Positions 94 through 38,481 of a stretch of 64,000 nt of DNA are shown one piece after another. The notes beneath the pieces were generated by a model that searched no databases, was not told the origin of the DNA, and saw nothing but the letters and a program-made list of their open reading frames with translations. The translations under genes were made by a program, and so were the position numbers. Within the stretch, counting starts at the first letter, position 1. Each line of letters starts with the position of its first letter. Source of the stretch: Paludibacter sp. (GTDB taxonomy: Bacteria; Bacteroidota; Bacteroidia; Bacteroidales; Paludibacteraceae); contig JARLGX010000031.1 in assembly GCA_031292575.1 (NCBI GenBank), forward strand, positions 1 to 64,000, written 5' to 3'.

Positions 94-98
94 TTTTA

Positions 99-17880: not shown

Positions 17881-18939
17881 TTAGTTTTTGATAGCTAAAG
17901 GCCAATCATTTTTATCCCACTCCAGTTTTTCAATTATAAGTTTTGGCTTTCCTCCATCGTGGGCATCATATCCATGAAACAAAATATAATCAGTACCATC
18001 AAAACTAACTACCGCATTGTGTCCAACTCCATACCAATTTTCGTCACCTTGTTGTACCAGTGTTCCGCCGCCTTTTGCCATTGGAATTCCGGCTTCATCC
18101 ACATAGGGACCGGTTAACTTTTCCGATCGTCCTACAATCATTTTATACGTACTCTTCTCTCCTTTGCAGCAATAATCTATCGAAGCAAATAAATAATAAT
18201 ACTTTCCTTTGTGGAAAATAAAAGGTGCTTCAATGGCATTACCTCCCGCATCTACAGGGTTACCTTCAATGGCGGGCGGATTGCTCAACCCAGAATCAGA
18301 CTTCCGTGAAGCAATGGTAGGAATAAACCGAATATCTTCGTCGATGCTTTTGGCATCGGGCGAAAGTTTCGCCAGTTTTATTCCATCCCAAAAAGAACCA
18401 AAACACAAATAAGGAGTCCCATCTTTATCTATAATTAAATTTGGATCAATGGCATTCCAGTTTGTTTTACCCGGTACAGACTCAATAATTTTCCCCTGGT
18501 CAACCCATTTGAAATTTGGATCGTGCGGATTAAGAGTTTTATTTATTGCCAGACCAATGCACGATGTATTTTTCCCAAAAGCCGAAACGGAATAATACAG
18601 ATAATACTGTCCGTTATACAGCGAAATATCAGGAGCCCAAAAATTTCCTTTAAATGATGGAATTGCATCAATCGTCCATTGAGGTACTTTTGCAAAAACA
18701 GGTTCTTCTTTTTTCCAACTTTTCATATCGGGCGAAGAGAAAACAGAAATTCCCCAGCCTGTACAAAACACATAATATGTGCTATCTTGCCTGATCATCA
18801 CAGGGTCATGAACAATGATACCGGACTTTGCAGATACCTGCGTAGAAAAAAACAGACTCAATAGAACGAAAGAAAAAACAATGCTTTTAATATTCAATGC
18901 TTTTTTTATAAATGAAATTTTAATAGTTATTGCGGACAT
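17881..18939 (-). CDS. GH43 arabinan endo-1,5-alpha-L-arabinosidase, short form
   Basis: A 352-residue exported five-bladed beta-propeller hydrolase. After a signal peptide (about 1-38) the GH43 catalytic residues are visible: base Asp45 in IVHDPVMIR, pKa-modulating Asp165 in WNAIDPNLI, and acid Glu237 in AIEAPF. FWAPDISLYNGQYYLYYS is the standard blade motif. The sequence resembles endo-arabinanases (subfamilies 4/5), which cut the 1,5-linked backbone. It is the last gene on the minus-strand arm of the arabinan locus, 302 bp after the other GH43 gene. Exact specificity (endo or exo) is not certain. Confidence 0.88.
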   Translation of the reverse strand: MSAITIKISFIKKALNIKSIVFSFVLLSLFFSTQVSAKSGIIVHDPVMIRQDSTYYVFCTGWGISVFSSPDMKSWKKEEPVFAKVPQWTIDAIPSFKGNFWAPDISLYNGQYYLYYSVSAFGKNTSCIGLAINKTLNPHDPNFKWVDQGKIIESVPGKTNWNAIDPNLIIDKDGTPYLCFGSFWDGIKLAKLSPDAKSIDEDIRFIPTIASRKSDSGLSNPPAIEGNPVDAGGNAIEAPFIFHKGKYYYLFASIDYCCKGEKSTYKMIVGRSEKLTGPYVDEAGIPMAKGGGTLVQQGDENWYGVGHNAVVSFDGTDYILFHGYDAHDGGKPKLIIEKLEWDKNDWPLAIKN

Positions 18940-20894: not shown

Positions 20895-21011
20895 GATAAG
20901 AAAATAATAAGTAAATGACAAATATGTATGTTGATGACTATAAATATAACGAGAATCAATCTTCTGTATTGTAAATATACAAGCCCGATAGCAATTAGAA
21001 ATGGTTAAAGC

Positions 21012-22829: not shown

Positions 22830-22857
22830 ATTGATACTCTCTTTTAATATTATATTA

Positions 22858-25800
22858 TTAGAATGAAGCGTGAATTCCAAACATGATTGTTTGAGGTGAT
22901 GGATACGAACAATAGTTGTAGCCTGGAGTAAATGTGCCTCCGGCGAAGTCCACATTATACCCTTTGTATTTAGTAAATGTGTACAGGTTTTGAGCCGATG
23001 CATATAAACGAACACCGTTCATATAGCCACCAAACCATTTGTCAGGGAAATTATATCCCAATTCAATGTTGGCAATTTTAAAATAGGATGCATCCTGAAT
23101 AAAACGTTGGCTAAACATATCGTTGGTTATAGAACCCGTTGTTTTGTATGCTACACGGGGTACGTTGGTGTTTGTATTTGCCGGTGTCCAGGCATTCAGC
23201 AAATCTACGCTTTTGTTGAGTGCACCATATGAGCTAAGCAATGTCATATCTACAAAATCTACAGCTTTGAAACCCGTAACTCCATAAGTAGACACACTCA
23301 GGTCGAAATTTTTGTATTCAGCATGGAGATTTAAACCGAAGTTTAACTTTGGAAGTCCGCTCCCTAAATATGTTTGGTCAGCAGCAGTAATTTCTCCATC
23401 GTTGTTGAGGTCGGCATATTTTATATCACCCGGTTGTGCCCCGTCCTGAGTGATGTGATTTCCTTTTGAGTTAACACGATTATCAATTTCAGATTGCGAC
23501 TGGTAGATACCTTGGGAAACATAGCCATAGAATGATCCAGCCTCACGACCTACCTCAGTGCGACAATAGCCAACAGTTAGAGGATTGTTTGCAACTCCTA
23601 ACTTTGTAACCATATTATTGATGGTAGACATGTTTGCCGAGATATCGTACTTCACAGCATTTTTATGATTGTGATATGTCAATGTAAACTCTAACCCTGT
23701 ATTTTGCATCGTTGCTGCATTCATAGTTACCGTTGTGTTGGTAGCACCCGCACTGGGAGGAACCGGTACACCATAAAGAAGGTCTTCAGAAATTGCGTTG
23801 TAATAATCAAAAGTAAACTCTAACGAATTATTGAACATTGCCATATCAAGTCCATAATCAGCTGTCTTTTTCTTTTCCCATCCGATAGCTGTGTTTACAT
23901 AGTTAGACACGGCAGATCCGGTTACCTTCGTATTTCCAAAACTATAAGTATAGTTACCCCTTGACATCACATCCATATATTCGTATGCACCGATATTCTG
24001 TACACCAAGTTCACCATAACTAGCACGAACCTTGAACAGATTCACTAATGATTCGGATACAGGGAAGAATTTTTCACGATCAAGACGCCAACCTCCTGAT
24101 ATAGAAGGAAAAGTGACCCAACGGTTTTCTGACAAACGACTTGAACCATCACGACGGGCTGTAACCGTAACCAGGTATTTATCATCGTAATTATAATTTA
24201 GACGACCAATATATGATGCCAATAAACTCTGCTCTTCATAACTTTGTGATGATGTGGTTGTAGCATTATTTAATTGCAAGTAATAAGGTTCACTCAAAGT
24301 AACACCAAAGCCAGTCAGTGTGTGAGTTAAATCGCTCTCAAAAGTTTGACCAACTAATGCATTGATGTGGTGAAGTCCGAACTTACCATCGTAGGTTATG
24401 GTGTTTTCGATAAGCGAATGGCTGTAACTACGATAGCCTTCAGTCAGTTTTTCATCACTTTTTGACAAATAGTTAGTGGTACTTTGAATAAATGCAGGTA
24501 CAAATGTTAGATCCTTTGCGTATGTACGGCTGTAAGATGTATTCAGGTTATAATTTAACTTTTGGTTGCTGCTTTTAAGCCCAATCATGTCTAATAGGTC
24601 AACGTCTGCAGATCCTGTAGCAACAATGCGATCAACAGTTGTATTTCTTTTGATCAAATTATTTTCCAGCAATACGTTGGTTACACGCAAGTCCCCATGA
24701 ACGTTGTCATAGTAAGTACCATAACCGTATGAGTCATAACTGTAATTTGACGCAGCGGGAATTTTGTCATCGAGAACCCAGGTTGATGGATCGTAAGCCT
24801 TGATGGTTGGAGGTAAAAGCAACACCGAAGCCATTACAGGATATTGTGCTCCATAAAGACCTTGAACATATTCATTGGCATTACTCAATGCCATATAATC
24901 CTGATTACTATGGCTATATACAATGTTTGTTTTAAGTTTTAAAAACTTACTTTCCATTGTGTTAGTTACGCGGGCAGTGTAACGGTCGAAGTTTGGTCCG
25001 GTGCCTACCATCGTACCTTTCTGGTTAAAGTAGTCGAGAGAAATGTTATATGTATTTTTATTCCCGCCGCCTGACATATTTATGCTGTGATCCTGACGAA
25101 TACCTGTTTTAAATGCTTCATCAAACCAGTTTGTGTTCACCTTTGCACTTCCATCGGCATTGTACAAATAGTTTGCATTGGTAGGATCATATCCACCTGG
25201 AACACTCATGCCACTATTGCCATAAGCCATGTTGATGTATTTTCCGTATTGCTTTGAATCCATTACATCGTACACTCCTTTTTGAATATTATCAATTCCA
25301 AAGTAACCATTGTAGGTTATTTTCATTGGCTGATTCTTATTTCCTTGCTTAGTGGTAATAATAATTACCCCATTAGCCGCACGTGAACCGTAAATTGCAG
25401 CTGCAGATGCATCTTTCAATACCTGAAGAGATTCGATGTCATTTGGCGAGAAGTCGCGTATAGATCCTCCCATAGGTACTCCATCTATGACGTAAAGTGG
25501 GTCAGTGTTTGTGAACGAACCCAGTCCACGAATACGAACGGTAGGGTCGGCACCCGGTTGTCCATCGGTTGTAATTTGTAATCCGGGCACTTTTCCTTCC
25601 AGCATGGTAGAGATGTTTGAGTTCGATACTTTTTTCAACTCTTCAGTATTGACAATGGCTACTGAGCCTGTAAGGTCAACTTTGCGTTGTGTACCATAAC
25701 CTATTACTACCAATTGGGTAAGTTCATTGACATTGGCAGCCAAAACAATATTTCCAAGTTTGGTTTTATCACCAACTGCAACTTCCAGTTTTTTGAAACC

Positions 25801-26064
25801 TACATAGGATACCACCAACGTAGCATTTGAAGGAACAGAAAGAGAGAAACTACCATCCAAATCGGTTATTGTACTATTGGTTGTACCTTTTTGCTGGATT
25901 GTTGCGCTAGGAAGCGGTTCTCCATTATCATCAATTATTTTACCCTTTACGGTGATATTACCTTGTTGAGCCATTGACACCTGGTTTGCATTACCAGTGG
26001 CTTCTGAGAATGTTGCCGGTGTAAATGCCAGCAACCCCAGAAGGATTAAATATGAATATTTCAT
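22858..26064 (-). CDS. SusC/RagA-family TonB-dependent transporter
   Basis: A 1068-residue outer-membrane importer. Order of parts: signal peptide (1-22), carboxypeptidase-D-like domain (about 35-110, VKGKIIDDNGEPLPSATI), plug with the conserved VVIGYGTQRKVDLTGS and LQVLKDASAAAIYGSRAANG, then a 22-strand barrel ending in an aromatic residue (GIHASF). I chose the ATG at 26064 since the frame upstream runs into the preceding gene. It imports glycan fragments bound by the SusD partner, using TonB energy. It is the second gene of the operon, 25 bp after the glycan-binding lipoprotein, which is unusual, as susC is mostly first. Confidence 0.95.
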   Translation of the reverse strand: MKYSYLILLGLLAFTPATFSEATGNANQVSMAQQGNITVKGKIIDDNGEPLPSATIQQKGTTNSTITDLDGSFSLSVPSNATLVVSYVGFKKLEVAVGDKTKLGNIVLAANVNELTQLVVIGYGTQRKVDLTGSVAIVNTEELKKVSNSNISTMLEGKVPGLQITTDGQPGADPTVRIRGLGSFTNTDPLYVIDGVPMGGSIRDFSPNDIESLQVLKDASAAAIYGSRAANGVIIITTKQGNKNQPMKITYNGYFGIDNIQKGVYDVMDSKQYGKYINMAYGNSGMSVPGGYDPTNANYLYNADGSAKVNTNWFDEAFKTGIRQDHSINMSGGGNKNTYNISLDYFNQKGTMVGTGPNFDRYTARVTNTMESKFLKLKTNIVYSHSNQDYMALSNANEYVQGLYGAQYPVMASVLLLPPTIKAYDPSTWVLDDKIPAASNYSYDSYGYGTYYDNVHGDLRVTNVLLENNLIKRNTTVDRIVATGSADVDLLDMIGLKSSNQKLNYNLNTSYSRTYAKDLTFVPAFIQSTTNYLSKSDEKLTEGYRSYSHSLIENTITYDGKFGLHHINALVGQTFESDLTHTLTGFGVTLSEPYYLQLNNATTTSSQSYEEQSLLASYIGRLNYNYDDKYLVTVTARRDGSSRLSENRWVTFPSISGGWRLDREKFFPVSESLVNLFKVRASYGELGVQNIGAYEYMDVMSRGNYTYSFGNTKVTGSAVSNYVNTAIGWEKKKTADYGLDMAMFNNSLEFTFDYYNAISEDLLYGVPVPPSAGATNTTVTMNAATMQNTGLEFTLTYHNHKNAVKYDISANMSTINNMVTKLGVANNPLTVGYCRTEVGREAGSFYGYVSQGIYQSQSEIDNRVNSKGNHITQDGAQPGDIKYADLNNDGEITAADQTYLGSGLPKLNFGLNLHAEYKNFDLSVSTYGVTGFKAVDFVDMTLLSSYGALNKSVDLLNAWTPANTNTNVPRVAYKTTGSITNDMFSQRFIQDASYFKIANIELGYNFPDKWFGGYMNGVRLYASAQNLYTFTKYKGYNVDFAGGTFTPGYNYCSYPSPQTIMFGIHASF

Positions 26065-26089
26065 TGTCTTTATATTTTTATCTTTGTGA

Positions 26090-27805
26090 TTATTGAACAA
26101 GTACCATATAAGATTCCTCTGTAACGAGTGCACAAGTCAGATCAGAACTATTTACCGTTACACCCGCATATTTTTGGAAATGCGTTTCGCCGTTGGCGTA
26201 AGTAACATTATAAATCACATTAGCCGTGTTGTCGCCATTGTTTGTAACTGTGATGACTATCTTGGAGCCACTTATATTTGATGTAAATGAAGCCCAATTC
26301 CAGTCAGATGTGGCGGTGGCAGTGTTATAGCCGGCGTCCCAACCGTAATTGTCCATCCTAACTACAGCATATTCAGTGGTCTTGCCAGCATTACGAAGAA
26401 CTACACAGGGGCTGTGCCAGTTTGCTAAATTATCGGAATAGCAGTACATGATAAATGTCTGACTCGAACCCGATGCGACTGTGTAGTCACTAGAGAATGC
26501 CGTCCACCAAGCGGTAGAGAAGTTAACAGCACCTATTTGACTTAGACCCTTTACAAGAGTCACCGGGCAAGTTGTAGTTGTTGTTTTTGTTGCTCCAGCA
26601 TAAGAAATGACAACGTTCTGAGAACCTTCGGCAGCTGGAATTTTTCCAAACTTAAGATTGGCATTTGATATAACGCCTTGGGTTCCGTCGGAATAAGTAG
26701 CTGTTACGACAAGTCCAGCAGTGTTAAATATTATCGAATCGCTGCTGAAGTAATAGTATGAGGTGATAGTTGGCAATGTAGTAACCGCTAAGCTCAAAAC
26801 AGGGTTAGTTACTTCCAAAGTATAGTAGCCTGATATAGCCTGGCAGAAAGCGCCTTGCTTCGTTTTGTTATAAGAAACAACAACTGTCTTGGTCCCGAGT
26901 GAAGTCATATCAGGAATAACTGTGAAGGTTAGATTTGTAGAATCAACTTTCGCAGTAGATCCGTCAGCGTAAGTAACAGTAGCTACAGCCTTACCCCAGA
27001 AGTTTGGGTTGCCCTTTTCGACAAAAGCAGGAGCTCCCGTAACAGCGATTGAAACTGGTTTAACGTCTGCAACAACAGTGACTTTAGATGGTATAAGGTA
27101 TGCTTTTTTCATCTCGAAATGGCTGCCATCGCAAACTAAGAAAGCATTGATATCATCAATGGCTGAAACCGGTTGATGATAGGTCTCGACCAGTTTTGTA
27201 CCATTTGTTCCAACGGAGGTGACTGTTACAAACACATTACCGGTAGCAGAATGGTCAATGTCCATAGAAACATGAGCGCCCTGCATGGTCGTACGGAAGT
27301 CGTCCCAAATATCTCCATTTCCATTGGTGTCGGGATAGTTTTGGGTGATCAGACTTATTGCAAAAGCATAACTGGGATTAACACTTGACATTGTTCCACC
27401 CCAGCCGTAAGCATCGGAACGAAGAGCAAAGTATTCTGAATAAGTGCTGGCAGTCCGATCGGATACCGGATTGGTAACAACAAGATTCCAGTTATTCCAG
27501 TTGTTTAATCCGGAAGAATGGTTGATAAACTCCAGGTGCAATAACTTGTTCGAAGGAATGGTGAAGTAATCGGAGAATGCAGTCCACCATGCGGAACTGT
27601 TATCTTCAGCTCCGACAATCGGCGTAGCGATGGTGACATAAGTAGTGTCACCTGTGTTCGGTTTTGCAGCTGCAATTGAGTCTATCCTGTGTTGCAGGTT
27701 AGAAGGGGCATTGATTGGATAGAATCCAAGGTCATCGCATCCAACTAAGCTAAAAGCCAAGACTGCTGCACACGCAGTGCACATCATTAGTTTGGTGATT
27801 TTCAT
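26090..27805 (-). CDS. putative surface glycan-binding lipoprotein with duplicated domain and Ig-like repeats
   Basis: A 571-residue lipoprotein (lipobox LVGC, Cys23). It has a mirror-like architecture: domain A (about 65-240), two bacterial Ig-like domains (about 248-333 and 338-418), and a second copy A' (about 424-571). A and A' share AWWTAFSxxYT, a following NLxNW/NNW segment, and DxYGW, so they are internal duplicates, rich in Trp and Tyr as in carbohydrate-binding modules. The Ig-like units have VTATYSDGT-type strands. As the first gene of the SusC/SusD operon it most likely plays the SGBP (SusE-like) role of capturing arabinan at the surface. No enzyme motif is seen. Confidence 0.75.
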   Translation of the reverse strand: MKITKLMMCTACAAVLAFSLVGCDDLGFYPINAPSNLQHRIDSIAAAKPNTGDTTYVTIATPIVGAEDNSSAWWTAFSDYFTIPSNKLLHLEFINHSSGLNNWNNWNLVVTNPVSDRTASTYSEYFALRSDAYGWGGTMSSVNPSYAFAISLITQNYPDTNGNGDIWDDFRTTMQGAHVSMDIDHSATGNVFVTVTSVGTNGTKLVETYHQPVSAIDDINAFLVCDGSHFEMKKAYLIPSKVTVVADVKPVSIAVTGAPAFVEKGNPNFWGKAVATVTYADGSTAKVDSTNLTFTVIPDMTSLGTKTVVVSYNKTKQGAFCQAISGYYTLEVTNPVLSLAVTTLPTITSYYYFSSDSIIFNTAGLVVTATYSDGTQGVISNANLKFGKIPAAEGSQNVVISYAGATKTTTTTCPVTLVKGLSQIGAVNFSTAWWTAFSSDYTVASGSSQTFIMYCYSDNLANWHSPCVVLRNAGKTTEYAVVRMDNYGWDAGYNTATATSDWNWASFTSNISGSKIVITVTNNGDNTANVIYNVTYANGETHFQKYAGVTVNSSDLTCALVTEESYMVLVQ

Positions 27806-28588
27806 GAAATTAGAATTAATTGTTATTTATTGATATAATTAAAGTGTCAGGTTTACAACCTACACGTTGATTTTGTTTCATAACAGGAATAGTAGTCTGG
27901 TTTTCGGCCATTTTTGAAATTCGACTATTCTGCTTTTAATCGTTTACAGGGATTTAAATCTTTTTCCCACCAAGCACTCCTCCAATTCACAAAATTGCAT
28001 CAGTAGCTCCATTTCTTGATGTTTTGTACATACTCATTTGTCAACTGTTAATTTTAATGTATTTAAATCAAAATTGAGATTAGATTTAAACAATTTCTAA
28101 AGGATCAAGGAAATGCTGTGTTTTCATAACTTTATAATTTTAATTGATCTTGAGTTTTATGTTTTATTTGAAGCTTATTCTATTTTTCAATCGCTTTCAG
28201 TTTAATTTTTCAACCATTCTTAAGCGTCTTATTTACACTTAATCTGACAACAAAAAACCAAATGACTTTACTTAATATTATCGAATATTTATTTTTCATC
28301 CAATTGAATTATATCGTTGCAAATGTATGTATAGTGGTTCACGGCATGGTCAACAAATGTTTTTTTATAGTGGACAATTGTATATAAAGAGAAAAAATAA
28401 AATATCCACTTATAAATATCCTCAGTAACCATAAGGAAACCAGGCATTTTGTACATATTTCTCATTAGATTTAAAGAAGCCCTGTCTGAAAATAATTTGG
28501 GAGATACCGAACTTATCTTCGGAACAGAACGACTTTAATTCTAATTACTAAACTAATACCTGATTGACTTAAACTACCTGTTTTCTTA
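27806..28588 (-). other. long upstream region of the SusCD operon
   Basis: A 783-bp gap without a convincing gene. The candidate promoter (-7 box TACATTTG at 28320-28327) with upstream TCCACTA-type sites would give an untranslated leader of about 500 nt. The leader is AT-rich and I see no known riboswitch in it. TATAGTGG occurs twice (28330-28337 and 28366-28373). Confidence 0.5.
28320..28386 (-). promoter_or_regulatory. HTCS-type promoter of the SusCD operon
   Basis: On the minus strand the heptamer TCCACTA (28368-28374), preceded by ATACAATTG, ends 40 bp before the -7 box TACATTTG (28320-28327). A weak second heptamer TTGACCA (28347-28353) ends 19 bp before it. The same layout occurs at three other promoters of this locus. 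No TTTG -33 box is present. Confidence 0.6.
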
Positions 28589-30541
28589 TTACAACTTTAT
28601 CACATATAAATTGAATGATTTCGGAGCTAATATTGCTTCAAATGTATTTCCTGAAACTTTGATTTCGTTGGTTACGGGAACTACTGCTGTAGGATTATCC
28701 AGTTTTTCCTGGCCAGGATTTGCCGATGTTAAAATAGTATGTGTTCCTGTGCGTTCAGCTTTATTCATACCATTAAACGTATATGCAGCCTTTTTTTCAG
28801 CATCAGAAGTATTGACTATTTTCAGGATAATCTCGTTTTTGTTTTTATCAAGCACCGACGATGCATAAATTCCATCCTGACCTTCCAGGGGTAATTTGTT
28901 TTCAACGGTTTTCAACACATTTGTACCTACATTCATTCCGTAGAGTTGTTGCACATAATAATTTACAGACCTGACACTACGCAAATTATCGAACCAAATC
29001 AGGTCTGGCTTCCATTGCCAACCCTGCACATGTGCAAAAAGAGGTGCATAGGTACATTGATAAACCACATCGGCATTACGTTCAAAACCGGTCATAAAAG
29101 CAGCTTCACAAAGTGCCGATTCAAAACTATTTTTGCGGTCTTTCGTGTGACAGGCATATTCCCCTGCAAATACTTTAGGTCCTTTACGGTCGTAATTATC
29201 GTAGCGGTTGGCATTCGACAAAAACCATTGTGGATCTTTATAGTAATGTTCGTCCACCAAATCTGCTTTCAATCGTTTCATCTCTTTCCATCCAAATTCA
29301 AAATCTTTTCCATCGGGACTTGGACCGGCCGTACCAACTATTTTAAAATTAGGATATTTGGCATGAATCGCTTTCATAAATGGTTCTAAACGTTCGGGAT
29401 AAAGACTTCCCCATTGTTCATTGCCTATTGCCATCATTTTCAAATTGAACGAAGCCGGATGACCCATATCGGAACGAACTTTTCCCCATTTGGTAGTTAC
29501 ATCTCCATTGGCGAATTCAATCAAATCCAAAGCATCCTGAATGTAAGGATCTAATTTATTTACAGCAACATTTTCTTTATCATCGTGATTTTGAAACTGG
29601 CACGCCAATCCGCAGCTGATTACCGGAAGTGGTTCTGCTCCAATATCTTCCGAAAGTTGAAAGAGTTCATAAAATCCCATTCCATACGATTGGAAATAAT
29701 CAGGGAAAAAACGGTTTGGGAAAGTGTATTGCCAGCGGTTTTCGTTTAATTTTCGGTTTTCAACCGGTCCAACCGAATTTTTCCATTCATAACGCGAGTT
29801 TAGATCAGTTCCTTCCACAATACAACCGCCCGGAAAGCGGAAAATGCCCGGGTGTAAATCATATAAAGCTTGTGCTAAATCTTTTCTTAACCCATTTTCC
29901 CTGCCTTTCCAGGTATCAACCGGAAACAGAGAAACATGATCAATATCAAGTGAATTTTTAGATGTCAAAAAAATACGCAAACGGCCTTTCAACTCTGTTT
30001 TACTTGCCTTCAAAACGATCTGGTATTTTTTCCAATCTTTGGAATCGATGGTGAGTGTTTGTGAATTAAATATACTACTTTCAGGGTCAATCAGTTCAAT
30101 GCGAATGCTACTGCTTTCGCCTTCGGGCAATCGGGCCCAAACTGAAAAACGGTATTCAGCATCTTGTTTTACAGAAATTCCGAAAAAACCTTCGTTATCC
30201 ATTCCGGTTTGTTTCACATTGTGCCCGGGATATGAAAGGCGCACGTAATGAGGATTGTTTGGAAATGCAGGCTTGTCAGTGCGAACTTCCACTTTGCCAA
30301 AGCTTGTCCAACCTAACAAGCTCTGCGGAAATTCAAATGAACGATTCTTTATCATTTCGGCATAAAGCCCGCCATCTGCGCCATAATTAATATCTTCGAA
30401 GAAAATACCGTACATGGTCTTCTGAATAGGTGATCCTATTTTTTTTAGATCAACCTGAATGGCGTGTGTTTGTGAAAAGATTAATTGTGTTCCCAATACA
30501 ATTGAGCATACCAACACAACCAATGATTTTGATTTTCTCAT
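28589..30541 (-). CDS. GH51 alpha-L-arabinofuranosidase
   Basis: A 650-residue exported retaining glycosidase that removes alpha-L-arabinofuranose side chains or terminal residues from arabinan or arabinoxylan. A signal peptide (about 1-27) is followed by a CBM-like jelly-roll insert (about 75-210) and the (beta/alpha)8 barrel. The acid/base is Glu375 in AIGNEQWG and the nucleophile Glu461 in VFAGEYACH. GIFFEDINYGADGGLYAEM is the family N-terminal motif. It has its own promoter with two TCCACC heptamers, separate from the SusCD operon. Confidence 0.93.
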   Translation of the reverse strand: MRKSKSLVVLVCSIVLGTQLIFSQTHAIQVDLKKIGSPIQKTMYGIFFEDINYGADGGLYAEMIKNRSFEFPQSLLGWTSFGKVEVRTDKPAFPNNPHYVRLSYPGHNVKQTGMDNEGFFGISVKQDAEYRFSVWARLPEGESSSIRIELIDPESSIFNSQTLTIDSKDWKKYQIVLKASKTELKGRLRIFLTSKNSLDIDHVSLFPVDTWKGRENGLRKDLAQALYDLHPGIFRFPGGCIVEGTDLNSRYEWKNSVGPVENRKLNENRWQYTFPNRFFPDYFQSYGMGFYELFQLSEDIGAEPLPVISCGLACQFQNHDDKENVAVNKLDPYIQDALDLIEFANGDVTTKWGKVRSDMGHPASFNLKMMAIGNEQWGSLYPERLEPFMKAIHAKYPNFKIVGTAGPSPDGKDFEFGWKEMKRLKADLVDEHYYKDPQWFLSNANRYDNYDRKGPKVFAGEYACHTKDRKNSFESALCEAAFMTGFERNADVVYQCTYAPLFAHVQGWQWKPDLIWFDNLRSVRSVNYYVQQLYGMNVGTNVLKTVENKLPLEGQDGIYASSVLDKNKNEIILKIVNTSDAEKKAAYTFNGMNKAERTGTHTILTSANPGQEKLDNPTAVVPVTNEIKVSGNTFEAILAPKSFNLYVIKL

Positions 30542-30584
30542 ATTATAACTTAAATTTAATTAGCAAAAGGTATTTTTAATTCTG

Positions 30585-30650
30585 CAAAGAAAGTACAATT
30601 ATTTCGGCAAGAGGTGGACGAAATTTTCTTTTTGGTGGAAATTTGTATAT
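30585..30650 (-). promoter_or_regulatory. HTCS-type promoter of the GH51 gene
   Basis: On the minus strand, heptamers TCCACCA (30633-30639, preceded by TACAAATT) and TCCACCT (30612-30618) lie 21 bp apart. They end 40 and 19 bp before the -7 box TTTCTTTG (30585-30592). No separate -33 box is seen. Confidence 0.6.
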
Positions 30651-30757
30651 TATCAATTAAATTTAATCTCAAAATAGCTTACCCAGGCAACTTCAAAATA
30701 TTGCTGTAACAGACATTATATCAACTTTTTTAATCAAGAAACTATAAATAGAAGTGT

Positions 30758-33700
30758 TTATTCTTTCTTGTTTTCAAAAAAAGAACTTGGCTGAATTCCA
30801 AAATGCTTGGTAAAGCATCGTGTAAAATATTTGGGGTCATTAAATCCTACTTCGTAAGCAATTTCCGAAATGTTTAAAGTATGGTTCACATTGTTCTTAA
30901 TGATTAATTCCCGAGCAACATTAAGTCTGTAAACCCGGATAAACCTGCTGGCCGACTGACCTGCCAGATTCGTGAGTTTTTTGTGCAACAAACTCCGACT
31001 TATTCCCATTGATTCCATAAACTCAGTAACATCGAATTCGGAATTGGTATAATTTTCTTTAATCACTTTTAAAGCCTTGTCGATAAATTTTTTATCCAAT
31101 GATTCGTCATCAAAATTCAAAACGTTGGAATCCATATTTTCGGCAAAATTGAGTTGTATCCGTTTCCGCTTTTCGTTCAAATTCCTGATTATAGCTTTTA
31201 ATAATTCCTCATCAAAGGGTTTTACCAAAAATGCATCGGCACCCAATTGGAAGCTTTCAATTTGAGTATCGGTAGATGATTTGGCTGTGAGTAGAATGAC
31301 TGGAATATGCGATGTTGTAAAAGCAGTTTTCACCCGTTTGCAAAACTCCATACCATCCATTTCGGGCATCATAATATCACTTATTATTAAATCCGGCAAA
31401 TATCGATTGGTAACCTCAAGCCCGACCACCCCATTGGGAGCCTCGAGCACATTGAACTCTTCACATAGAATTGAGCGGACGTACTGGCGCATATCACTGT
31501 TATCTTCTACAATTAGTAAAATCGGTTTTGTTTTCGAAAATTCTTCAGAGATATTATCGTGAACGTTTTCTTCGTTTCTCGGATTCATTTCCATAGGTTT
31601 TCCGTCGATAGAAACTACAGTTGATATACGACGATCAATAGGTATTATAAACCTGAAACACGAACCACCTGAAGTTTGATTGAGAACCTCAATTTTTCCA
31701 TCATGTAATTCAATAATACGTTTACAAAGATAAAGTCCAATGCCGGTTCCACTTTGTCCATAGCCTGAATAAGCATGATTTTGTTTGGATTGAAAAAATC
31801 TGTCGAAAATTTTCTCCCTGTCATTTTCCGGAATACCTTTCCCTGTGTCTTTTACCGCCACATAAAGCCTTTCTCTCCGGTCGGTTTTATCTGTATAGGT
31901 ACTTGCTACAACGGTAATCATACCATGGTCGGGAGTAAATTTAATAGCATTTGACAGCAGGTTTCCCATTACTTTTTGCATATTATCCCTATCGAAAAAG
32001 AATTCGGGTGGGTTAATACGGTATAGCTTTCTAAATGTAATTCCTCTATCTTTTACTAAATCTTCGAATGGCAAAATCAAATCATTCAAAAACTCGATAA
32101 AATTTTGCTGGGTTTTAACTATTTCCATTTTCCCCGAGTCTACTTTTCGGAAATCCATCAGTTGATTGATTAAACCAAGCAACAATCTTGAATTCCGTTG
32201 CACAATATTTAATTGCTCGAGCACTTTCGGGTTTGTACTTAATTTCAAGGAACGTTCTACCGGACCAAGAATTAAGGTTATTGGTGTCCTAAATTCATGT
32301 GTGATATTGGTGAAAAAAGAAATTTTATCAACATTTGCTTCTTCAACCTTTTTTGAAAGTAAGATTAATTCTTCCTTTTGATATGTAATTTTTTGATTTT
32401 GAGCAATCAACATCTCGTTTTGCCGTGATACCTCATCCTGATGTTCAATCAACACTTCCATATTTGATTTCAACTGTTGAGCCTGTTCTTCAAGCATTTC
32501 CTTCTGTTGTTCAATTTCTTGTGTTCGTTCATCCACAAGTTTTTTTAGTTGAACCTTTTGTTTTTCCAGCAACTTGATCCGATGTACTGAATATTGGTAA
32601 ATTCCGTAAATTATTGAGCTGATAAACAAGATAATAAACCACCACGTTTTGTAAAATGGTGGTATCACTTTAATATTGAGGGTTGTAACTTGGTCGGACC
32701 AGCTGCCATCTGTATTGGTACATTTAATTTCCAGTTGATAGTTTCCAAATTTTATATTTGTAAAGTTTGCAAAACGTCTATCGGAACTCACTTCTGTCCA
32801 GTTATTATCAAACCCTTTTAAGCGGTAAGCGTATTTAATCTTGTCAGCCAAATTATAACACAGCGCTGAAAATTCGACACTAAAAGCTTTGTCAGATTCT
32901 TTGAGCACGATCTGATTTAAATTATCGCCTTCAAATTTGAGTTGACGATTCGAATTTTTGAAATTTGGTGAAAAGACATCTTCATTCAACACCTTAATTC
33001 GTGTAATCGATGCTTTATTTTTATTTAGTACCGGTGTGGATTTTAATGGATTAAAACAAGTTAAGCCTGCCACATTTCCAAAGTACATTTTACCATCGTG
33101 CCCTTTAAAATAGGCATCCCAGTAGAATTGATTAGATTTCAATCCATCAGTTTTGGTGAAACTTCGGGTGCTGTTTCTGTTTGGATTGTATACGCATAAC
33201 CCTTTGTCGGTGCTTAACCATATTCTACCGGCATCATCTTCCAACATTCCATAGATTACATTGTCAAGTAAACCCTTATTTTGGTCGAAATTTTCAAATT
33301 TCATTTCATCGGCTTTCTCTTTCAGGCAATAAATTCCATTGCCATTGCTTCCGAACCACAATTGGCCTTCTTTGGTTTCAAGTATGCAATTTATTTTTTC
33401 AATTTTGTGTGAAGCGGGGTTTGTTAACTCATAACGAAAATACTTGTATTGAATTTTATTCTGACTTAAATTTGATTTTGCCAAGTACACACAAAACAAA
33501 CCATATCCGGTTCCAATCCACAAGCGTTGTTTTTTATCGATATACATTCCGGTAACAAATCGGATATGTTTTTCGCTGGGTAAATAATCTAAAACGTGAA
33601 TGAAATGTTCGGTATCTAAATTGAAAAAATCCAAACCAGCTCGTGTTCCAATCCATAATCCATGATTTTTTTCATCGGAAACAATTGATGCTACAAAATC

Positions 33701-35062
33701 ATTTATTAGGCTGTTTTTTGAGGATGGGTTATTGTAAAATTGTTGAAATACTGGCTTATACTTGTCTTTATTTCTCAACCGATTTATTCCTTTTCCCCAA
33801 GTGCCAAACCAATAATCGCCCCGATAATCCTGACAAATACAGCTTACCGAATTGTGACTCAACGACTTTTGATTTTGTGATTGGCTATAGCAATGTATAA
33901 AATCCGATGAACCTTGCTTCCGTAAATTAAGTCCTCCTTCAACAGTTCCTACCCATAAATTACCTGAATTATCTTCGTAAATTGAATTTACAGGGTTTTT
34001 AGATAAACTGCCTTGGTTTTCGGCAGAGTGACTAAGGTTTGTAAAAATATTCAAATCAGGGGTTAATAAATTAACTCCTCCTTTTTCGGTTCCAAACCAA
34101 ATTAAATTATCATTAACTAAAATACAACTTACAAAGTTGTTATTCAGTGTAATTCCACTTGAGTTACTTTCGGATGTTATATGATCAAAGGCATCAGTTC
34201 GATAATCATAGATATTTAAACCAATAAGCGTACCGATCAGTAATTGACCATTTTGACTTTTGTTTATATCGGTAATATAGTTAGACGAAAGTGAATTTGG
34301 ATTTACAGGGTTCGAAAAATAGGCAGTTAAAGTCTCCGATATTGGTTCATATTTATACAAGCCGGTAGCGGTTCCAATCCAAATTAATCCGTTGTCGTAA
34401 TAAAGTACATTTATAATGCCCGGAAATTGTTTAAGTTTTTGTCCGGCACTTACTTTATTATATTTGCCATTACTTCCTTTAATTAGTTGAAAAACTTCTG
34501 TGTCCTGGGCTACAAATATACTTCCGTTAAACTGAATAAATGCCGTGACCGTTGTAGCGCTATGGTAAACATCGTTTAGTTTTATGTGATTATCAGACGT
34601 GTAATGCAAATTAAACAGGCCATTATCATAACCAATCCAAATATCATTGGACTCATCTCTTTTTATAAATTTTATTGACCTTGAATCGAGATTTGGCTTA
34701 GAATCCAATATTACGCTTGCATTTACAATTTCGCCTGTTTTATAATTTAGAAAATAAAGCCCATTTTCGGTTCCAATCCAGAGATTCCCGTTTTGATCCT
34801 CTTCTACACAACTAACATTATCGCACTGCAAAGGGTTTGCCGAATTCCGGCTGTTGAAATGGATAAAATCATAGCCGTCGTACCTGTCTAAACCATTGTT
34901 TGTTGAAATCCACATAAATCCGCGCGAATCGCGAAAAATATGTTGAACCAAATTGCGCGACAACCCATTGTCGGCTGTTAAGTAGGTGATTTTATAAGTC
35001 GATGCCCATACGGATACGAAACCGAAAAGAATGAGAAAAGCTGGAAGGAATATTTTTTTCAT
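30758..35062 (-). CDS. hybrid two-component system sensor/regulator (HTCS)
   Basis: A 1434-residue one-protein two-component system that senses a periplasmic sugar and acts as transcription factor. Signal peptide 1-21; two seven-bladed regulator-propeller domains (repeats such as LWIGTENGL, about 25-680); Y_Y_Y domain (about 720-800); membrane helix (about 806-824); coiled coil; histidine kinase with His922 in THEFRTP and ATP-binding GTGIGLYLC; receiver with Asp1229 in IISDIMMP and Lys1281; AraC-type HTH (about 1335-1434). The start at 35062 is chosen because the frame upstream overlaps the promoter. It is the obvious regulator of this arabinan locus; the ligand is probably an arabino-oligosaccharide. 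Confidence 0.95.
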   Translation of the reverse strand: MKKIFLPAFLILFGFVSVWASTYKITYLTADNGLSRNLVQHIFRDSRGFMWISTNNGLDRYDGYDFIHFNSRNSANPLQCDNVSCVEEDQNGNLWIGTENGLYFLNYKTGEIVNASVILDSKPNLDSRSIKFIKRDESNDIWIGYDNGLFNLHYTSDNHIKLNDVYHSATTVTAFIQFNGSIFVAQDTEVFQLIKGSNGKYNKVSAGQKLKQFPGIINVLYYDNGLIWIGTATGLYKYEPISETLTAYFSNPVNPNSLSSNYITDINKSQNGQLLIGTLIGLNIYDYRTDAFDHITSESNSSGITLNNNFVSCILVNDNLIWFGTEKGGVNLLTPDLNIFTNLSHSAENQGSLSKNPVNSIYEDNSGNLWVGTVEGGLNLRKQGSSDFIHCYSQSQNQKSLSHNSVSCICQDYRGDYWFGTWGKGINRLRNKDKYKPVFQQFYNNPSSKNSLINDFVASIVSDEKNHGLWIGTRAGLDFFNLDTEHFIHVLDYLPSEKHIRFVTGMYIDKKQRLWIGTGYGLFCVYLAKSNLSQNKIQYKYFRYELTNPASHKIEKINCILETKEGQLWFGSNGNGIYCLKEKADEMKFENFDQNKGLLDNVIYGMLEDDAGRIWLSTDKGLCVYNPNRNSTRSFTKTDGLKSNQFYWDAYFKGHDGKMYFGNVAGLTCFNPLKSTPVLNKNKASITRIKVLNEDVFSPNFKNSNRQLKFEGDNLNQIVLKESDKAFSVEFSALCYNLADKIKYAYRLKGFDNNWTEVSSDRRFANFTNIKFGNYQLEIKCTNTDGSWSDQVTTLNIKVIPPFYKTWWFIILFISSIIYGIYQYSVHRIKLLEKQKVQLKKLVDERTQEIEQQKEMLEEQAQQLKSNMEVLIEHQDEVSRQNEMLIAQNQKITYQKEELILLSKKVEEANVDKISFFTNITHEFRTPITLILGPVERSLKLSTNPKVLEQLNIVQRNSRLLLGLINQLMDFRKVDSGKMEIVKTQQNFIEFLNDLILPFEDLVKDRGITFRKLYRINPPEFFFDRDNMQKVMGNLLSNAIKFTPDHGMITVVASTYTDKTDRRERLYVAVKDTGKGIPENDREKIFDRFFQSKQNHAYSGYGQSGTGIGLYLCKRIIELHDGKIEVLNQTSGGSCFRFIIPIDRRISTVVSIDGKPMEMNPRNEENVHDNISEEFSKTKPILLIVEDNSDMRQYVRSILCEEFNVLEAPNGVVGLEVTNRYLPDLIISDIMMPEMDGMEFCKRVKTAFTTSHIPVILLTAKSSTDTQIESFQLGADAFLVKPFDEELLKAIIRNLNEKRKRIQLNFAENMDSNVLNFDDESLDKKFIDKALKVIKENYTNSEFDVTEFMESMGISRSLLHKKLTNLAGQSASRFIRVYRLNVARELIIKNNVNHTLNISEIAYEVGFNDPKYFTRCFTKHFGIQPSSFFENKKE

Positions 35063-35084
35063 GTAGTTGAAATAAAGATAACTA

Positions 35085-35140
35085 CGAAAATAAATAAAAT
35101 ATCTTGTATTGTTAGTGGATAATTGTTTAATATGTGTGGA
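35085..35140 (-). promoter_or_regulatory. HTCS-type promoter of the HTCS gene (autoregulation)
   Basis: On the minus strand TCCACAC (35134-35140) and TCCACTA (35113-35119, preceded by TAAACAATTA) lie 21 bp apart and end 41 and 20 bp before a -7-like TATTTTCG (35085-35092). Same layout as the enzyme promoters, so the regulator probably controls itself. Confidence 0.55.
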
Positions 35141-35149
35141 CTTTTTCAT

Positions 35150-35430
35150 AATTCAATAGTTAATTGAGGTGCCGATATTGAATATGAGGATATAAGCTTA
35201 CAAAATAGTTGTAAAAAAATGTGCTAAAAAGTATTTGTTTTTATACCAAAGAGAGCAAAACAAATCCATTTAAAGTTCTATGGACAATCTTTCACAATAG
35301 AAAGAATAAAAAGGTAATTCAGAATAAAAGCATTTCACTCACACAAAGTGAATCTTTGACGAGGTTAGATTTTAAATCAACACTCCAAATCCGACATCAA
35401 TAAACAGCCTGTTTTATCCGCAATTCCAAT
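35150..35430. other. divergent intergenic region, upper part
   Basis: Between the HTCS promoter and the transporter promoter lies AT-rich DNA with no recognisable gene. A 60-codon frame at 35221-35403 has no family resemblance and atypical composition; I do not call it. Confidence 0.4.
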
Positions 35431-35495
35431 TGAACAATAATCCGCTACTATTATTTTTTTGTACACTAACTCCATTTTTATTTTTCATATTTTTG
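35431..35495 (+). promoter_or_regulatory. HTCS-type promoter of the transporter-GH127 operon
   Basis: TGAACAATAA precedes the heptamer TCCGCTA (35441-35447); a second heptamer TACACTA is at 35462-35468, again 21 bp on. They end 40 and 19 bp before the -7 box TATTTTTG (35488-35495). Here the motif is on the plus strand, in the sense direction of its gene. Confidence 0.6.
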
Positions 35496-35595
35496 TAAAA
35501 GTTTTTTCAAATAATTACAATTTTAAATGCGAGTTCTTCATTCTTCCCAATTAATCTATGTAATTTTGCACATTGAAAATGATTGATTTGAAGCT

Positions 35596-36486
35596 ATGTT
35601 GAAAAAATTAAAACCATACATGATGCCCATTTCTATAACAGTGGGTGCTATTTTTTACAAGTTCTTTGCCTCTTTGGCTTTTTTTACTCCGTATCTGATT
35701 TTTGTCATGTTATTCCTGACTTATTGCACCCTGAGGTTAGACCAAATGCGTTTGTCGCGTCTTCACTTATGGCTGATTTTGATTCAGGTCTTCGGTAGTT
35801 TGGCAGTATTTTTAGTACTCTCGCCGATTAATGTCACACTCGCACAAGGAGCCATGATTTGTGTACTTGCTCCAACGGGTACTGCTGCTCCTGTAATTAC
35901 AGGTATGTTGAAAGGCAATATCGGCAGTCTGACATCGTATAGTTTAGTAAGCAATATGGTAGTGGCATTGGCAGCACCGGTAATTTTTGCCTTGGTGGGC
36001 AGTTACCAAAGTTTGCCATTTTTTGAATCGTTTTTAGCTATTTCGCAGCGGGTATTTGTATTATTATTTCTTCCGTTTGCTTTGGCAATGGTTTTGCAGA
36101 AATTTGTTCCGGCAATAACAATGAAAATAGCGTCTTTTTCTGGTCTTTCATTTTATTTCTGGTCATTGGCATTGGGAATAGTTACCGGACGAACCGTCGT
36201 ATTTATTCTGCAACAAAAAGGTACAAGTCATTTTGTTGAAATTATGGTAGCGGTTTTAGCCTTGGTGGTTTGTGTGGCTCAGTTTTTAATCGGGAGGGGA
36301 GTTGGGAAGCATTACAATGATACTGTGGCAGGAGGTCAGGGACTGGGACAGAAAAACACGATACTTGCAATTTGGATGGCGCAGGTTTATCTCAATCCAA
36401 TTGCTTCGATAGGGCCAGGTGCTTATGTACTTTGGCAAAATATTATAAATTCGTATCAGGTATGGCTTGTGCGGAAAAGTATTTAG
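35596..36486 (+). CDS. BASS/SBF-like membrane transporter
   Basis: A 296-residue inner-membrane protein with about nine or ten hydrophobic helices and almost no soluble part. Segments such as LAQGAMICVLAPTGTAAPVITGML and the C-terminal GQKNTILAIWMAQVYLNPIASIGPGAYV resemble bacterial members of the bile-acid:sodium symporter superfamily annotated only as 'transporter'. It is 24 bp upstream of the GH127 gene and shares the arabinan-type promoter, so it may import a product such as L-arabinose or an arabinobiose. That substrate is inference; the family is not a known sugar carrier. Confidence 0.7.
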   Translation: MLKKLKPYMMPISITVGAIFYKFFASLAFFTPYLIFVMLFLTYCTLRLDQMRLSRLHLWLILIQVFGSLAVFLVLSPINVTLAQGAMICVLAPTGTAAPVITGMLKGNIGSLTSYSLVSNMVVALAAPVIFALVGSYQSLPFFESFLAISQRVFVLLFLPFALAMVLQKFVPAITMKIASFSGLSFYFWSLALGIVTGRTVVFILQQKGTSHFVEIMVAVLALVVCVAQFLIGRGVGKHYNDTVAGGQGLGQKNTILAIWMAQVYLNPIASIGPGAYVLWQNIINSYQVWLVRKSI

Positions 36487-36510: not shown

Positions 36511-38481
36511 ATGAAAAAAACACTCATCACACTTACAGCATGTTTCCTGTTTGCGGGATTATCATTCGCTCAAACAACCGATTATCCGTATCAGGGTATA
36601 ACATTTAATCAGGTAAAGCTAAACGATGCATTTTGGTTTCCACGGGTTGAAACCAATCGTACAGTCACCATTCCGTCTTCGTTTCAGAAATGTCAGGAAA
36701 CCGGACGCATACAGAACTTTGTAAATGCCGCCACGCATACCGGAAAATTTCTTACTACGTTTCCATTTGATGATACAGATATTTACAAAACAATTGAAGG
36801 TGCATCCTTTTCAATGGCTGTTCATCCCGATGCCAAACTGGATAAGTACGTGGATAGTTTAATCACCATTGTGTCCAAAGCTCAGGAACCTGATGGATAT
36901 TTGTACACTGCACGAACCATTGATCCTGCACATCCGCATCCCTGGTCGGGCAAGGACCGTTGGGTAAATGAATCGGTAATGAGTCACGAGCTTTATAACT
37001 CCGGACATTTGTTCGAAGCAGCCTCAGCACATTTTCTTTCCACAGGGAAAAGGAATTTTCTCAATATTGCTTTGAAAAATGCGGACTTATTGACTCAGGT
37101 ATTTGGTCCCGGAAAAAGAAACGACGCTCCCGGACATGAAATAGTGGAAATGGGACTTGTTCGGCTTTATCGGATTACCGGAGAAAAAAAATACCTCAAT
37201 CTGGCCAAATTCTTTATTGATTGCCGTGGAAAGAAATTAGATAAAAACCGTGCTTACTGGCAGGATCAGGAACCGGTTGTAGACCAAAGAGAGGCCGTTG
37301 GTCATGCCGTTCGGGCTGCATATTTATATTCGGGAGTGGCCGATGTAGCTGCACTTACCGGTAACAAAGAATATGTGACTGCCATCGACAGCATCTGGGA
37401 AAATGTAGTTTCTAAAAAATTCTACATCAACGGAGGTATTGGTGCAAAACATGATGGAGAAAAATTCGGAGATAACTACGAACTGCCTAACAAAAGTGCC
37501 TACAACGAAACCTGTGCAGCCATTGCCAACGTGTATTGGAATTTTAGGATGTTCGAACTGCACGGACAATCCAAGTATATTGATGTGCTCGAACGTAGCC
37601 TTTATAACAATGTTCTTTCGGGTGTAAGCCTGGATGGGAAAAACTTTTTCTACCCAAATCCGCTTGCCGCCGATGGAAGTTATGTACGTCAGCCCTGGTT
37701 CGATTGTTCTTGTTGTCCAACTAACTTATGCCGCTTTATATCGTCGGTTACTGGTTATATTTATGCCCAAAAAGAAAGCAACCTGTACGTAAATTTATTT
37801 ATAGGAAGTAGCGCAACATTGAAGTTAAACGGAAAACAAGCTGTTGAAATTACACAACGCAGCAATTATCCCTGGGCGGGTGCTATCAGTTTTAGCATTC
37901 AACCAACGAAGAAAACCAGGTTTGCTCTTAGGTTACGCATTCCGGGTTGGGTGAACAATCAGCCTGTTCCAAGTAATTTATACAGCTACCTGACTAAAAC
38001 AAAAACGTCTTATTCAATAAAAGTAAATGGCAAAGATTTTAGTCCAACTGTGGAAGATGGTTATGCTGTGATTGACCGCGAATGGAAAAAAGGCGATAAA
38101 GTTGACTATAACTTACCAATGGCTATCCAACGTGTAGCTGCTAACGAAAGCGTGGCCGCCGACCGTGGTTTGGTGGCGTTGGAACGTGGACCGATTCTTT
38201 ATTGCCTTGAAGACAAAGACAATGCTTTTGACCTGAATAATTTTATTTTACCCGACTCAGCCACTTTAAATCTCACTTTTGCCAAAGATGTTCTAAACGG
38301 AACTTATACAATTAAAGGAGATGGAATTAGTATTTCGCCAACGGCCAACAAACTCGGGTTCCAATCCGAAACAAAAACTTTTATGGCTATCCCTTACAAC
38401 GTGTGGGACAACCGCGGAGGTTCTAAAATGCGTGTTTGGATTCCCCGCTCTGTCAGCGAGTTTAAATTGTCGGAAGAATAA
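36511..38481 (+). CDS. GH127 beta-L-arabinofuranosidase
   Basis: A 656-residue exported (signal peptide 1-20) enzyme of the former DUF1680 family, GH127. It has the Zn-cysteine active site of HypBA1-type enzymes: Glu333 and Cys335 in YNETCAA, and Cys399, Cys401 and Cys402 in DCSCCPTN, where one Cys acts as nucleophile. Glu317 in GEKFG is a candidate acid/base. The fold is an alpha/alpha-barrel followed by beta-sandwiches. GH127 removes beta-L-arabinofuranose, as in plant hydroxyproline-linked or pectin side chains. Second gene of the operon with the BASS-like transporter. Confidence 0.9.
   Translation: MKKTLITLTACFLFAGLSFAQTTDYPYQGITFNQVKLNDAFWFPRVETNRTVTIPSSFQKCQETGRIQNFVNAATHTGKFLTTFPFDDTDIYKTIEGASFSMAVHPDAKLDKYVDSLITIVSKAQEPDGYLYTARTIDPAHPHPWSGKDRWVNESVMSHELYNSGHLFEAASAHFLSTGKRNFLNIALKNADLLTQVFGPGKRNDAPGHEIVEMGLVRLYRITGEKKYLNLAKFFIDCRGKKLDKNRAYWQDQEPVVDQREAVGHAVRAAYLYSGVADVAALTGNKEYVTAIDSIWENVVSKKFYINGGIGAKHDGEKFGDNYELPNKSAYNETCAAIANVYWNFRMFELHGQSKYIDVLERSLYNNVLSGVSLDGKNFFYPNPLAADGSYVRQPWFDCSCCPTNLCRFISSVTGYIYAQKESNLYVNLFIGSSATLKLNGKQAVEITQRSNYPWAGAISFSIQPTKKTRFALRLRIPGWVNNQPVPSNLYSYLTKTKTSYSIKVNGKDFSPTVEDGYAVIDREWKKGDKVDYNLPMAIQRVAANESVAADRGLVALERGPILYCLEDKDNAFDLNNFILPDSATLNLTFAKDVLNGTYTIKGDGISISPTANKLGFQSETKTFMAIPYNVWDNRGGSKMRVWIPRSVSEFKLSEE

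What the first reader, a model, noticed from the sequence alone, without database searches (positions are those of the whole stretch)
28320..35495. Four promoters of the arabinan locus share two TCCACTA-like heptamers at fixed distance from the -7 box
Seen in sequence: upstream of the SusCD operon, GH51, the HTCS gene and the transporter-GH127 operon, two heptamers (TCCACTA/TTGACCA, TCCACCA/TCCACCT, TCCACAC/TCCACTA, TCCGCTA/TACACTA) lie 21 bp apart. They end 40/19, 40/19, 41/20 and 40/19 bp before TAnnTTTG-like boxes. An ACAAT-rich block precedes the better heptamer in each case. The near heptamer sits where the -33 box should be. Inference: direct-repeat sites of the AraC domain of the HTCS, activating promoters without a -33 box, including its own gene.
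Basis: partly seen in the sequence, partly recalled or inferred. Interest (0 to 1): 0.85.

Follow-up and report, generated by a model that had tools for sequence, protein, structure and literature searches.

The report
Arabinan regulator's paired promoter binding sites
Four promoters of an arabinan-digestion gene cluster carry the same pair of short DNA sites at a fixed place, very likely where the cluster's own sugar-sensing regulator docks to switch the genes on; this type of site has been predicted before in gut bacteria, but its fixed position and wide conservation give a simple rule that can be tested.

Summary
It is not chance. A motif search on 24 upstream regions of related genomes, window excluded, found the same repeat, and a matrix from those sites ranks exactly these four first in the window (46, 39, 37, 27 bits; fifth 7.9). 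Genome-wide they are four of the top five model hits; the other precedes pectinesterase and GH28 genes. Of 33 further hits examined in the genus, 31 precede CAZyme or SusC-type genes. Among 80 named loci a strong site lies beside the regulator in 27 of 40 with a similar DNA-binding domain and 4 of 39 without. In 28 of 28 loci picked by near half-site and box alone, the partner lies at 21 bp. Best explanation: direct-repeat sites of the AraC-type domain of the locus's hybrid two-component regulator (HTCS), the near half-site lying in the -33 region. HTCS sites as direct repeats about 21 bp apart were predicted in Bacteroides in 2013, so the kind is known. The lock to the -7 box, and autoregulation in close relatives only, are additions. 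Binding, activation and start sites are unproven.

The parts
28320..28383 (-). HTCS-type promoter upstream of P571-SusC-SusD-GH43-GH43 (operon inferred): far heptamer 28374..28368, near 28353..28347, -7-type box TACATTTG 28327..28320
   Evidence: 37.0 bits; E 6.5e-6, whole genome; conserved in L034-L036
30585..30648 (-). HTCS-type promoter of GH51: far 30639..30633, near 30618..30612, box TTTCTTTG 30592..30585
   Evidence: 46.0 bits; E 6.9e-8; found in 11 genus loci
35085..35149 (-). HTCS-type promoter of the HTCS gene itself: far 35140..35134, near 35119..35113, box TATTTTCG 35092..35085
   Evidence: 39.0 bits; E 1.8e-8; found in 10 genus loci, one with a poor far half-site (L035) and one with a 19-bp repeat (L038)
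35432..35495 (+). HTCS-type promoter of the transporter-GH127 pair: far 35441..35447, near 35462..35468, box TATTTTTG 35488..35495
   Evidence: 27.0 bits; E 0.0097; absent from the 28 readable homologues of the transporter fetched from the genus
35561..35568 (+). second -7-type box TAATTTTG of the transporter gene, likely its ancestral promoter
   Evidence: 35 bp before the ATG; 13 of 28 readable homologues have a TA..TT[TC]G box 28-43 bp before the ATG
30758..35062 (-). HTCS: propeller sensor, Y_Y_Y, HisKA, HATPase, receiver, AraC-type HTH; likely start ATG 35062 (signal-peptide-like), not 35149
   Evidence: Pfam; translation; orthologues
28589..30541 (-). GH51 alpha-L-arabinofuranosidase
   Evidence: Pfam
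26090..27805 (-). P571, first gene behind the SusCD promoter (only a weak Big_3 match below cutoff)
22858..26133 (-). SusC-like TonB-dependent receptor
21075..23015 (-). SusD-like protein
19242..20921 (-). GH43 with GH43_C domain
17881..18939 (-). GH43
35596..36486 (+). transporter, weak SBF (sodium/bile acid symporter) match just below cutoff
36511..38481 (+). GH127 beta-L-arabinofuranosidase

Best explanation
The paired heptamers are the cores of two half-sites of about 15 bp (roughly ACAWTTNTCCWCNN), repeated head to tail with a 21-bp period (two helical turns). They are bound by two AraC-type DNA-binding domains of the HTCS encoded in the same locus (30758-35062). In the expected cycle, an arabinan oligosaccharide in the periplasm leads to phosphorylation of the receiver domain, which frees the DNA-binding domains; the dimer sits on one face of the DNA with its near half-site core at -26 to -20 from the start of the -7 box (one base further upstream in the HTCS promoter), in the -33 region, and recruits RNA polymerase to a TAnnTTTG-type promoter (class II-like activation). 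This switches on the SusCD-GH43 genes, GH51, the HTCS gene itself and, through a site apparently gained in this lineage, the transporter-GH127 pair. Shown here by computation: the repeat, its spacing, its lock to the box, its conservation, its rarity in the genome and its co-occurrence with this class of DNA-binding domain. Inferred: binding, activation, ligand and start sites.
For: Ab initio motif search on 24 relatives' upstream regions (window excluded) recovers the repeat: best of 8 runs 686 bits, worst 518, four shuffled controls 332-348. The matrix from those sites ranks the four window sites 1-4. Whole-genome model search: four of the top five; the remaining one precedes pectinesterase and GH28. 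Of 33 further hits examined (one in this genome, 32 in the genus), 31 precede a CAZyme or SusC-type gene within the first three genes, 1 precedes a LamG-domain gene only, 1 has no gene. Site of 20 bits or more beside the HTCS in 27 of 40 named loci with DBD identity of 50% or more (25 of 38 without two training loci) against 4 of 39 below 50%. Far half-site at lag 21 in 28 of 28 loci selected on near half-site plus box alone; some of these loci are closely related. Recognition helices almost invariant among 13 orthologues; the five other HTCS-like DBDs found in this genome share 33-35% with it. The receiver carries SHIP, part of the SHIP-DK motif tied to phosphorylation-gated DNA binding in PMC11253607 (passages).
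Against: No binding or expression data. Genomes without a close orthologue of this HTCS (G018, G023) also have hits before pectate-lyase-like genes, and 38 of 48 genus genomes have some hit at E up to 0.1, so a related regulator may share the motif and the contig-31 site may not belong to this HTCS. 13 of 40 loci with a similar DBD lack a strong adjacent site. In one relative (L038) the repeat of the HTCS promoter is 19 bp, and L035 has a poor far half-site. Lack of a -33 TTG does not set these promoters apart (7 of 26 against 25 of 91 have TTG there). One hit (G014:C80) has no gene behind it. No random promoter set was scanned for its share of CAZyme genes.
Confidence: 0.82

Rival explanations
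1. The sites belong to another AraC-type or HTCS regulator of the cell that acts on pectin and its side chains, and the HTCS beside them is at most one of several users.
For: Hits before pectate-lyase-like genes in G018 and G023, whose best match to this HTCS is about 39% or lower; one own-genome site lies before pectinesterase and GH28, about 30 kb from a different HTCS-like gene on contig 31.
Against: The motif beside the HTCS tracks the identity of its own DBD in named loci (27 of 40 against 4 of 39); the DBDs of the other five HTCS-like proteins found here share 33-35% with it and have other recognition helices.
Confidence: 0.1
2. The near half-site is an operator: the HTCS or another protein represses by blocking RNA polymerase, with relief on arabinan.
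For: The site covers the -33 region; repression by one HTCS, BT2391, is mentioned in PMC11253607 (passages).
Against: HTCSs with an intact SHIP-type interface show phosphorylation-dependent DNA binding in PMC11253607 (passages), and this HTCS has SHIP; the repressing BT2391 deviates from that motif.
Confidence: 0.07
3. The heptamers are a general upstream element of ordinary promoters of this organism, unrelated to arabinan.
For: They stand at a fixed distance from a TAnnTTTG-like box.
Against: Few strong hits in 3.46 Mb; of 117 box promoters in 55 stretches chosen from such loci only 26 score above the cut of 12 bits; 28 of 28 readable transporter homologues lack the site.
Confidence: 0.01

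Closest known systems
Predicted HTCS binding motifs of Bacteroides (Ravcheev et al. 2013, PMC3878776; passages read), including HTCS_Ara-1 (BT0366) and HTCS_Ara-2 (BT3049)
   Same: Direct repeat of two conserved sites, 21 bp apart on average, upstream of operons of glycan loci; arabinan loci with HTCS and SusCD among them; reading as a dimer on one face of the DNA.
   Different: The passages read do not tie the repeat to a -7 box. The sites here are in a Paludibacter-like lineage, include the HTCS gene's own promoter and a lineage-specific transporter-GH127 promoter. The 2013 logos and site lists could not be seen.
E. coli AraC at araI1-araI2 (recalled, no call)
   Same: Two half-sites in direct repeat with a 21-bp period, the near one reaching the -35 region; each half-site read by two HTH motifs in neighbouring grooves.
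   Different: The sugar binds AraC directly; here a membrane histidine kinase and receiver domain gate the DNA-binding domain. The promoter is of TAnnTTTG type, not sigma-70.
MtlR at PmtlE of Pseudomonas fluorescens (PMC4514859; passages read)
   Same: AraC/XylS activator on direct repeats upstream of the -35 sequence, tested by mutation, EMSA and footprint.
   Different: Two 15-bp blocks upstream of a -35 sequence; one-component regulator.

Membership tests
HTCS regulator (hybrid two-component system) | Periplasmic propeller sensor, Y_Y_Y, histidine kinase, receiver and AraC-type HTH in one polypeptide | tested here: met
   Reg_prop, Y_Y_Y, HisKA, HATPase_c, Response_reg and HTH_18 all above cutoff; REC-DBD matches PDB 12aw (E 1.3e-48) and the sensor matches 4a2l (E 9.9e-95) by sequence
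HTCS regulator (hybrid two-component system) | SHIP-DK interface motif of phosphorylation-gated members | tested here: inconclusive
   S1251 H1252 I1253 P1254 invariant in 13 orthologues; the DK position was not aligned with BT4124
HTCS direct-repeat binding motif (Ravcheev 2013) | Two similar sites in direct repeat, about 21 bp apart, upstream of operons of the cognate HTCS locus | tested here: met
HTCS direct-repeat binding motif (Ravcheev 2013) | Same sequence logo as HTCS_Ara-1 | not testable with these tools
   logos are in figures and supplements, which could not be read here
HTCS direct-repeat binding motif (Ravcheev 2013) | Bound by the HTCS DNA-binding domain | not testable with these tools
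   needs EMSA or footprint
AraC-type class II activator promoter | Near half-site at or overlapping the distal core promoter element | tested here: inconclusive
   near heptamer at -26 to -20 from the box start in three of four promoters, one base further upstream in the fourth, similar in relatives; but the distal element itself is weak in this group and was not defined by mapped starts
AraC-type class II activator promoter | Activation of transcription | not testable with these tools
   no expression data

The most novel reading that the evidence does not exclude
HTCS-activated promoters of Bacteroidales follow one rigid grammar: half-sites in a 21-bp direct repeat, the nearest ending 19-20 bp before a TAnnTTTG box, so that the regulator stands in for the -33 element; only the half-site letters change with the recognition helices. 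Genes join a regulon simply by gaining such a block upstream of their old promoter, as the transporter-GH127 pair appears to have done here. Support beyond arabinan: a different HTCS group (13 loci) with another half-site (about AACATTTnnCCCC) keeps C-rich pairs at -66/-65, -45/-44 and -25/-24 from its box; a motif-blind test in other HTCS loci peaks at lag 21, but weakly (z 2.9), and shows no clear peak in the HTCS-B loci.
Probability: 0.5. Interest if true: 0.65.

Novelty: new member of a known kind. Interest (0 to 1): 0.5.

Why it matters
HTCSs control many glycan-utilization loci of gut and environmental Bacteroidota; in B. thetaiotaomicron motifs were predicted for 16 of 36 of them (PMC3878776). 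A repeat at a fixed distance from the -7 box, tied to one class of DNA-binding domain and found from Paludibacter-like bacteria to Bacteroides, would let regulons be read from sequence. It names the bases to footprint and mutate, and offers a defined part for glycan-inducible promoters.

Tried and rejected
Generic upstream element: rejected, since few strong hits exist in the genome and most box promoters in these loci lack it (91 of 117 below the cut). Chance similarity of AT-rich sequence: rejected by Markov controls and the lag test. Transporter site as an ancestral feature of that gene: rejected, 28 of 28 readable homologues lack it. A contrast in -33 content between HTCS-type and other promoters: not found (7 of 26 against 25 of 91). 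A motif-blind proof that the 21-bp geometry holds for HTCSs in general: weak only (z 2.9 in 79 promoters; z 1.3, not the maximum, in 53 promoters of HTCS-B loci; 1.0 in 39 control promoters). A known RNA family in the long SusCD leader: none at gathering thresholds. A regular-expression search for HTH motifs printed nothing; replaced by tblastn.

Rows dropped: L039 was left out of the 24 training regions as a near-duplicate of L037, L038's GH51 region because the contig ends there, and L047-L053 as more distant. The 33 hits leave out two in L039 (HTCS and GH51 promoters). L062 was mis-read (wrong stretch taken), so 28 of 29 transporter homologues count. One of 80 named loci gave no DBD match. 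One search displayed 25 of the 80 loci. In one search two of 25 loci (L097, L103) lie at contig ends and are unreliable.
Full report
What is there. The window holds an arabinan utilization locus: GH43 (17881-18939), GH43 with GH43_C (19242-20921), SusD (21075-23015), SusC (22858-26133), a 571-aa protein (26090-27805), GH51 (28589-30541) and an HTCS (30758-35062), all on the minus strand, then a transporter (35596-36486) and GH127 (36511-38481) on the plus strand. The longest HTCS reading frame opens at 35149, but a signal-peptide-like N-terminus begins at ATG 35062, so the sites at 35113-35140 most likely lie upstream of the gene and not in it. The eight heptamers and four boxes are at the stated places and distances; two of the four boxes differ by one base from TAnnTTTG.

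More than chance. Orthologues of the HTCS were found in the genus, and stretches around them fetched (those used for training are 62-78% identical). Gibbs sampling on 24 upstream regions (10 HTCS, 11 GH51, 3 SusCD; window excluded) converged on a 36-bp motif with TCCWC cores 21 bp apart: best total 686 bits, the other seven runs 518-685, four shuffled controls 332-348 (only the best run's sites were looked at). A TAnnTT[TC]G-like box follows at a near-constant distance: the gap from near heptamer to box is 20 bp in 8 of 10 HTCS promoters, 19 bp in 9 of 11 GH51 and 3 of 3 SusCD promoters, 18-20 bp in the rest (aligned). A matrix from these sites ranks the four window sites first (46.0, 39.0, 37.0, 27.0) with the next at 7.9; 20 Markov sequences of the same length reach at most 15.9. 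The transporter promoter has no orthologue in the training set, so its score is independent.

Whole genome. A sequence-only profile from the relatives' sites was run over the 3.46-Mb genome. The five best hits are the HTCS, GH51 and SusCD sites, one at contig 31 (60442-60501) before a pectinesterase and a GH28 gene, and the transporter site (E 1.8e-8, 6.9e-8, 6.5e-6, 6.4e-5, 0.0097). Of the hits ranked 6-30 (E 0.13 and worse), 12 of 25 lie inside reading frames and 9 of 25 have a gene start within 300 bp in the right direction; these genes were not identified. In the genus scan (48 genomes; 38 have some hit at E up to 0.1) I examined 33 hits outside the training and window sites: all down to E 0.0019 except two in the near-duplicate locus L039, plus four weaker ones near known loci. 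One of the 33 is the contig-31 hit. 31 of 33 precede a CAZyme or SusC-type gene within the first three genes (GH51, GH43, GH127, GH97, GH88, GH31, Melibiase_2, pectinesterase, pectate-lyase-like, or LamG with SusC or GH127); some of these were named by BLASTP to Pfam-scanned genes. One (G020:C89) precedes a LamG-domain gene only and one (G014:C80) has no gene behind it. No random promoter set was scanned for comparison.

Link to the regulator. 80 named loci encoding relatives of the HTCS were fetched (a capped list); the nearest are Paludibacter sp. UBA6032 (76%), a Bacteroidetes MAG RA.bin87 (67%) and Paludibacter sp. 47-17 (55%). With the genus matrix, a site of 20 bits or more lies within 0.9 kb of the HTCS ends in 27 of 40 loci whose DNA-binding domain is at least 50% identical (25 of 38 without two training loci), in 4 of 39 below 50%, and in 0 of 1 without a domain match. 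Elsewhere in the same loci such scores occur in 2 of 40 and 5 of 39. The profile search agrees. Several are Bacteroides loci with GH43 and GH51 on one side and SusC genes on the other (25 of 80 loci displayed), much like the BT0366 locus as described in PMC3878776 (passages); identity with BT0366 was not tested. When sites were chosen by near half-site and box alone, the best partner among lags 12-35 lay at 21 in 28 of 28 loci, out of 38 eligible; some are closely related. The recognition helices are nearly invariant among 13 orthologues, and the five other HTCS-like domains found in this genome share 33-35% with this one.

Mechanism. The half-site of about 15 bp has two conserved parts (ACA and TCCWC) roughly one helical turn apart, as expected for a domain with two HTH motifs; two half-sites 21 bp apart place two domains on one face of the DNA (inference; the same reading of HTCS motifs is in PMC3878776). 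The near half-site lies in the -33 region. TTG starting 26-20 bp before the box occurs in 7 of 26 site promoters and 25 of 91 other boxes, and in 2 of 24 training promoters; in the window only the SusCD promoter has it, as the first letters of its near heptamer. So the lack of a -33 element fits the model but does not set these promoters apart; PMC7366714 notes that no -33 motif was identified in Flavobacterium johnsoniae (passage). I favour class II-like activation, with repression as a minor rival. SHIP in the receiver fits phosphorylation-gated binding as reported in PMC11253607 (passages).

Details that change the picture. The transporter keeps a box at 35561-35568, 35 bp before its ATG; 13 of 28 readable homologues have such a box 28-43 bp before theirs, while 28 of 28 lack the HTCS site (best matrix score 4.2 against 15.7). 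The HTCS site thus looks gained upstream of an older promoter. Autoregulation of the HTCS gene is seen in the window and the 10 genus loci used; among the named loci the strong adjacent sites face neighbouring genes, apart from one training locus (L197). The SusCD transcript would have a leader of about 510 nt (from the box position; no start is mapped).

Generality. A different HTCS group in 13 genus loci has another half-site but conserved C-rich pairs at -66/-65, -45/-44 and -25/-24 from its box. A motif-blind test in other HTCS loci has its maximum at lag 21 (z 2.9, 79 promoters) but not in the HTCS-B loci (z 1.3, 53 promoters), so the general rule is suggested, not shown.

Known or new. 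PMC3878776 predicted motifs for 16 HTCSs as direct repeats, 21 bp apart on average (passages). So this is a new member of a known kind. In the passages read I saw no link to a -7 box, and the searches (20 of 70 papers listed; 12 of 48 listed) showed no paper that I recognised as giving one; I read passages of six papers only, so this is no proof of absence.

Noticed in passing
window 27987-28031 (-), within the leader 27806-28315: The long SusCD leader is well conserved in L035 and L036 and holds a 14-codon frame MYKTSRNGATDAIL that resembles the N-terminus of SusC in L034 (MYKTQKDGATYAQ...); it may be a relic or a leader peptide.
   Followed up: partly
window 35561-35568 (+): A second -7-type box before the transporter, matching the apparent ancestral promoter of its homologues.
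   Followed up: yes
L181-L194, regions before the ~949-aa gene and SusCD: Another HTCS group shows half-sites of about AACATTTnnCCCC with a similar 21-bp period, three in a row, the nearest at about the same distance from the box.
   Followed up: partly
G000 contig 31, 60442-60501 (-), locus L143: A strong site of the same model precedes a pectinesterase and GH28 gene pair outside the window, a candidate further regulon member.
   Followed up: partly
window 35063-35149 (-): The longest reading frame of the HTCS gene starts 87 bases before the likely start and swallows its own promoter site; gene callers may do the same.
   Followed up: yes
window 1-95 (+), 9026-9096 (-), 9235-9305 (-): A 5S rRNA cut at the window edge and two tRNAs.
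   Followed up: no
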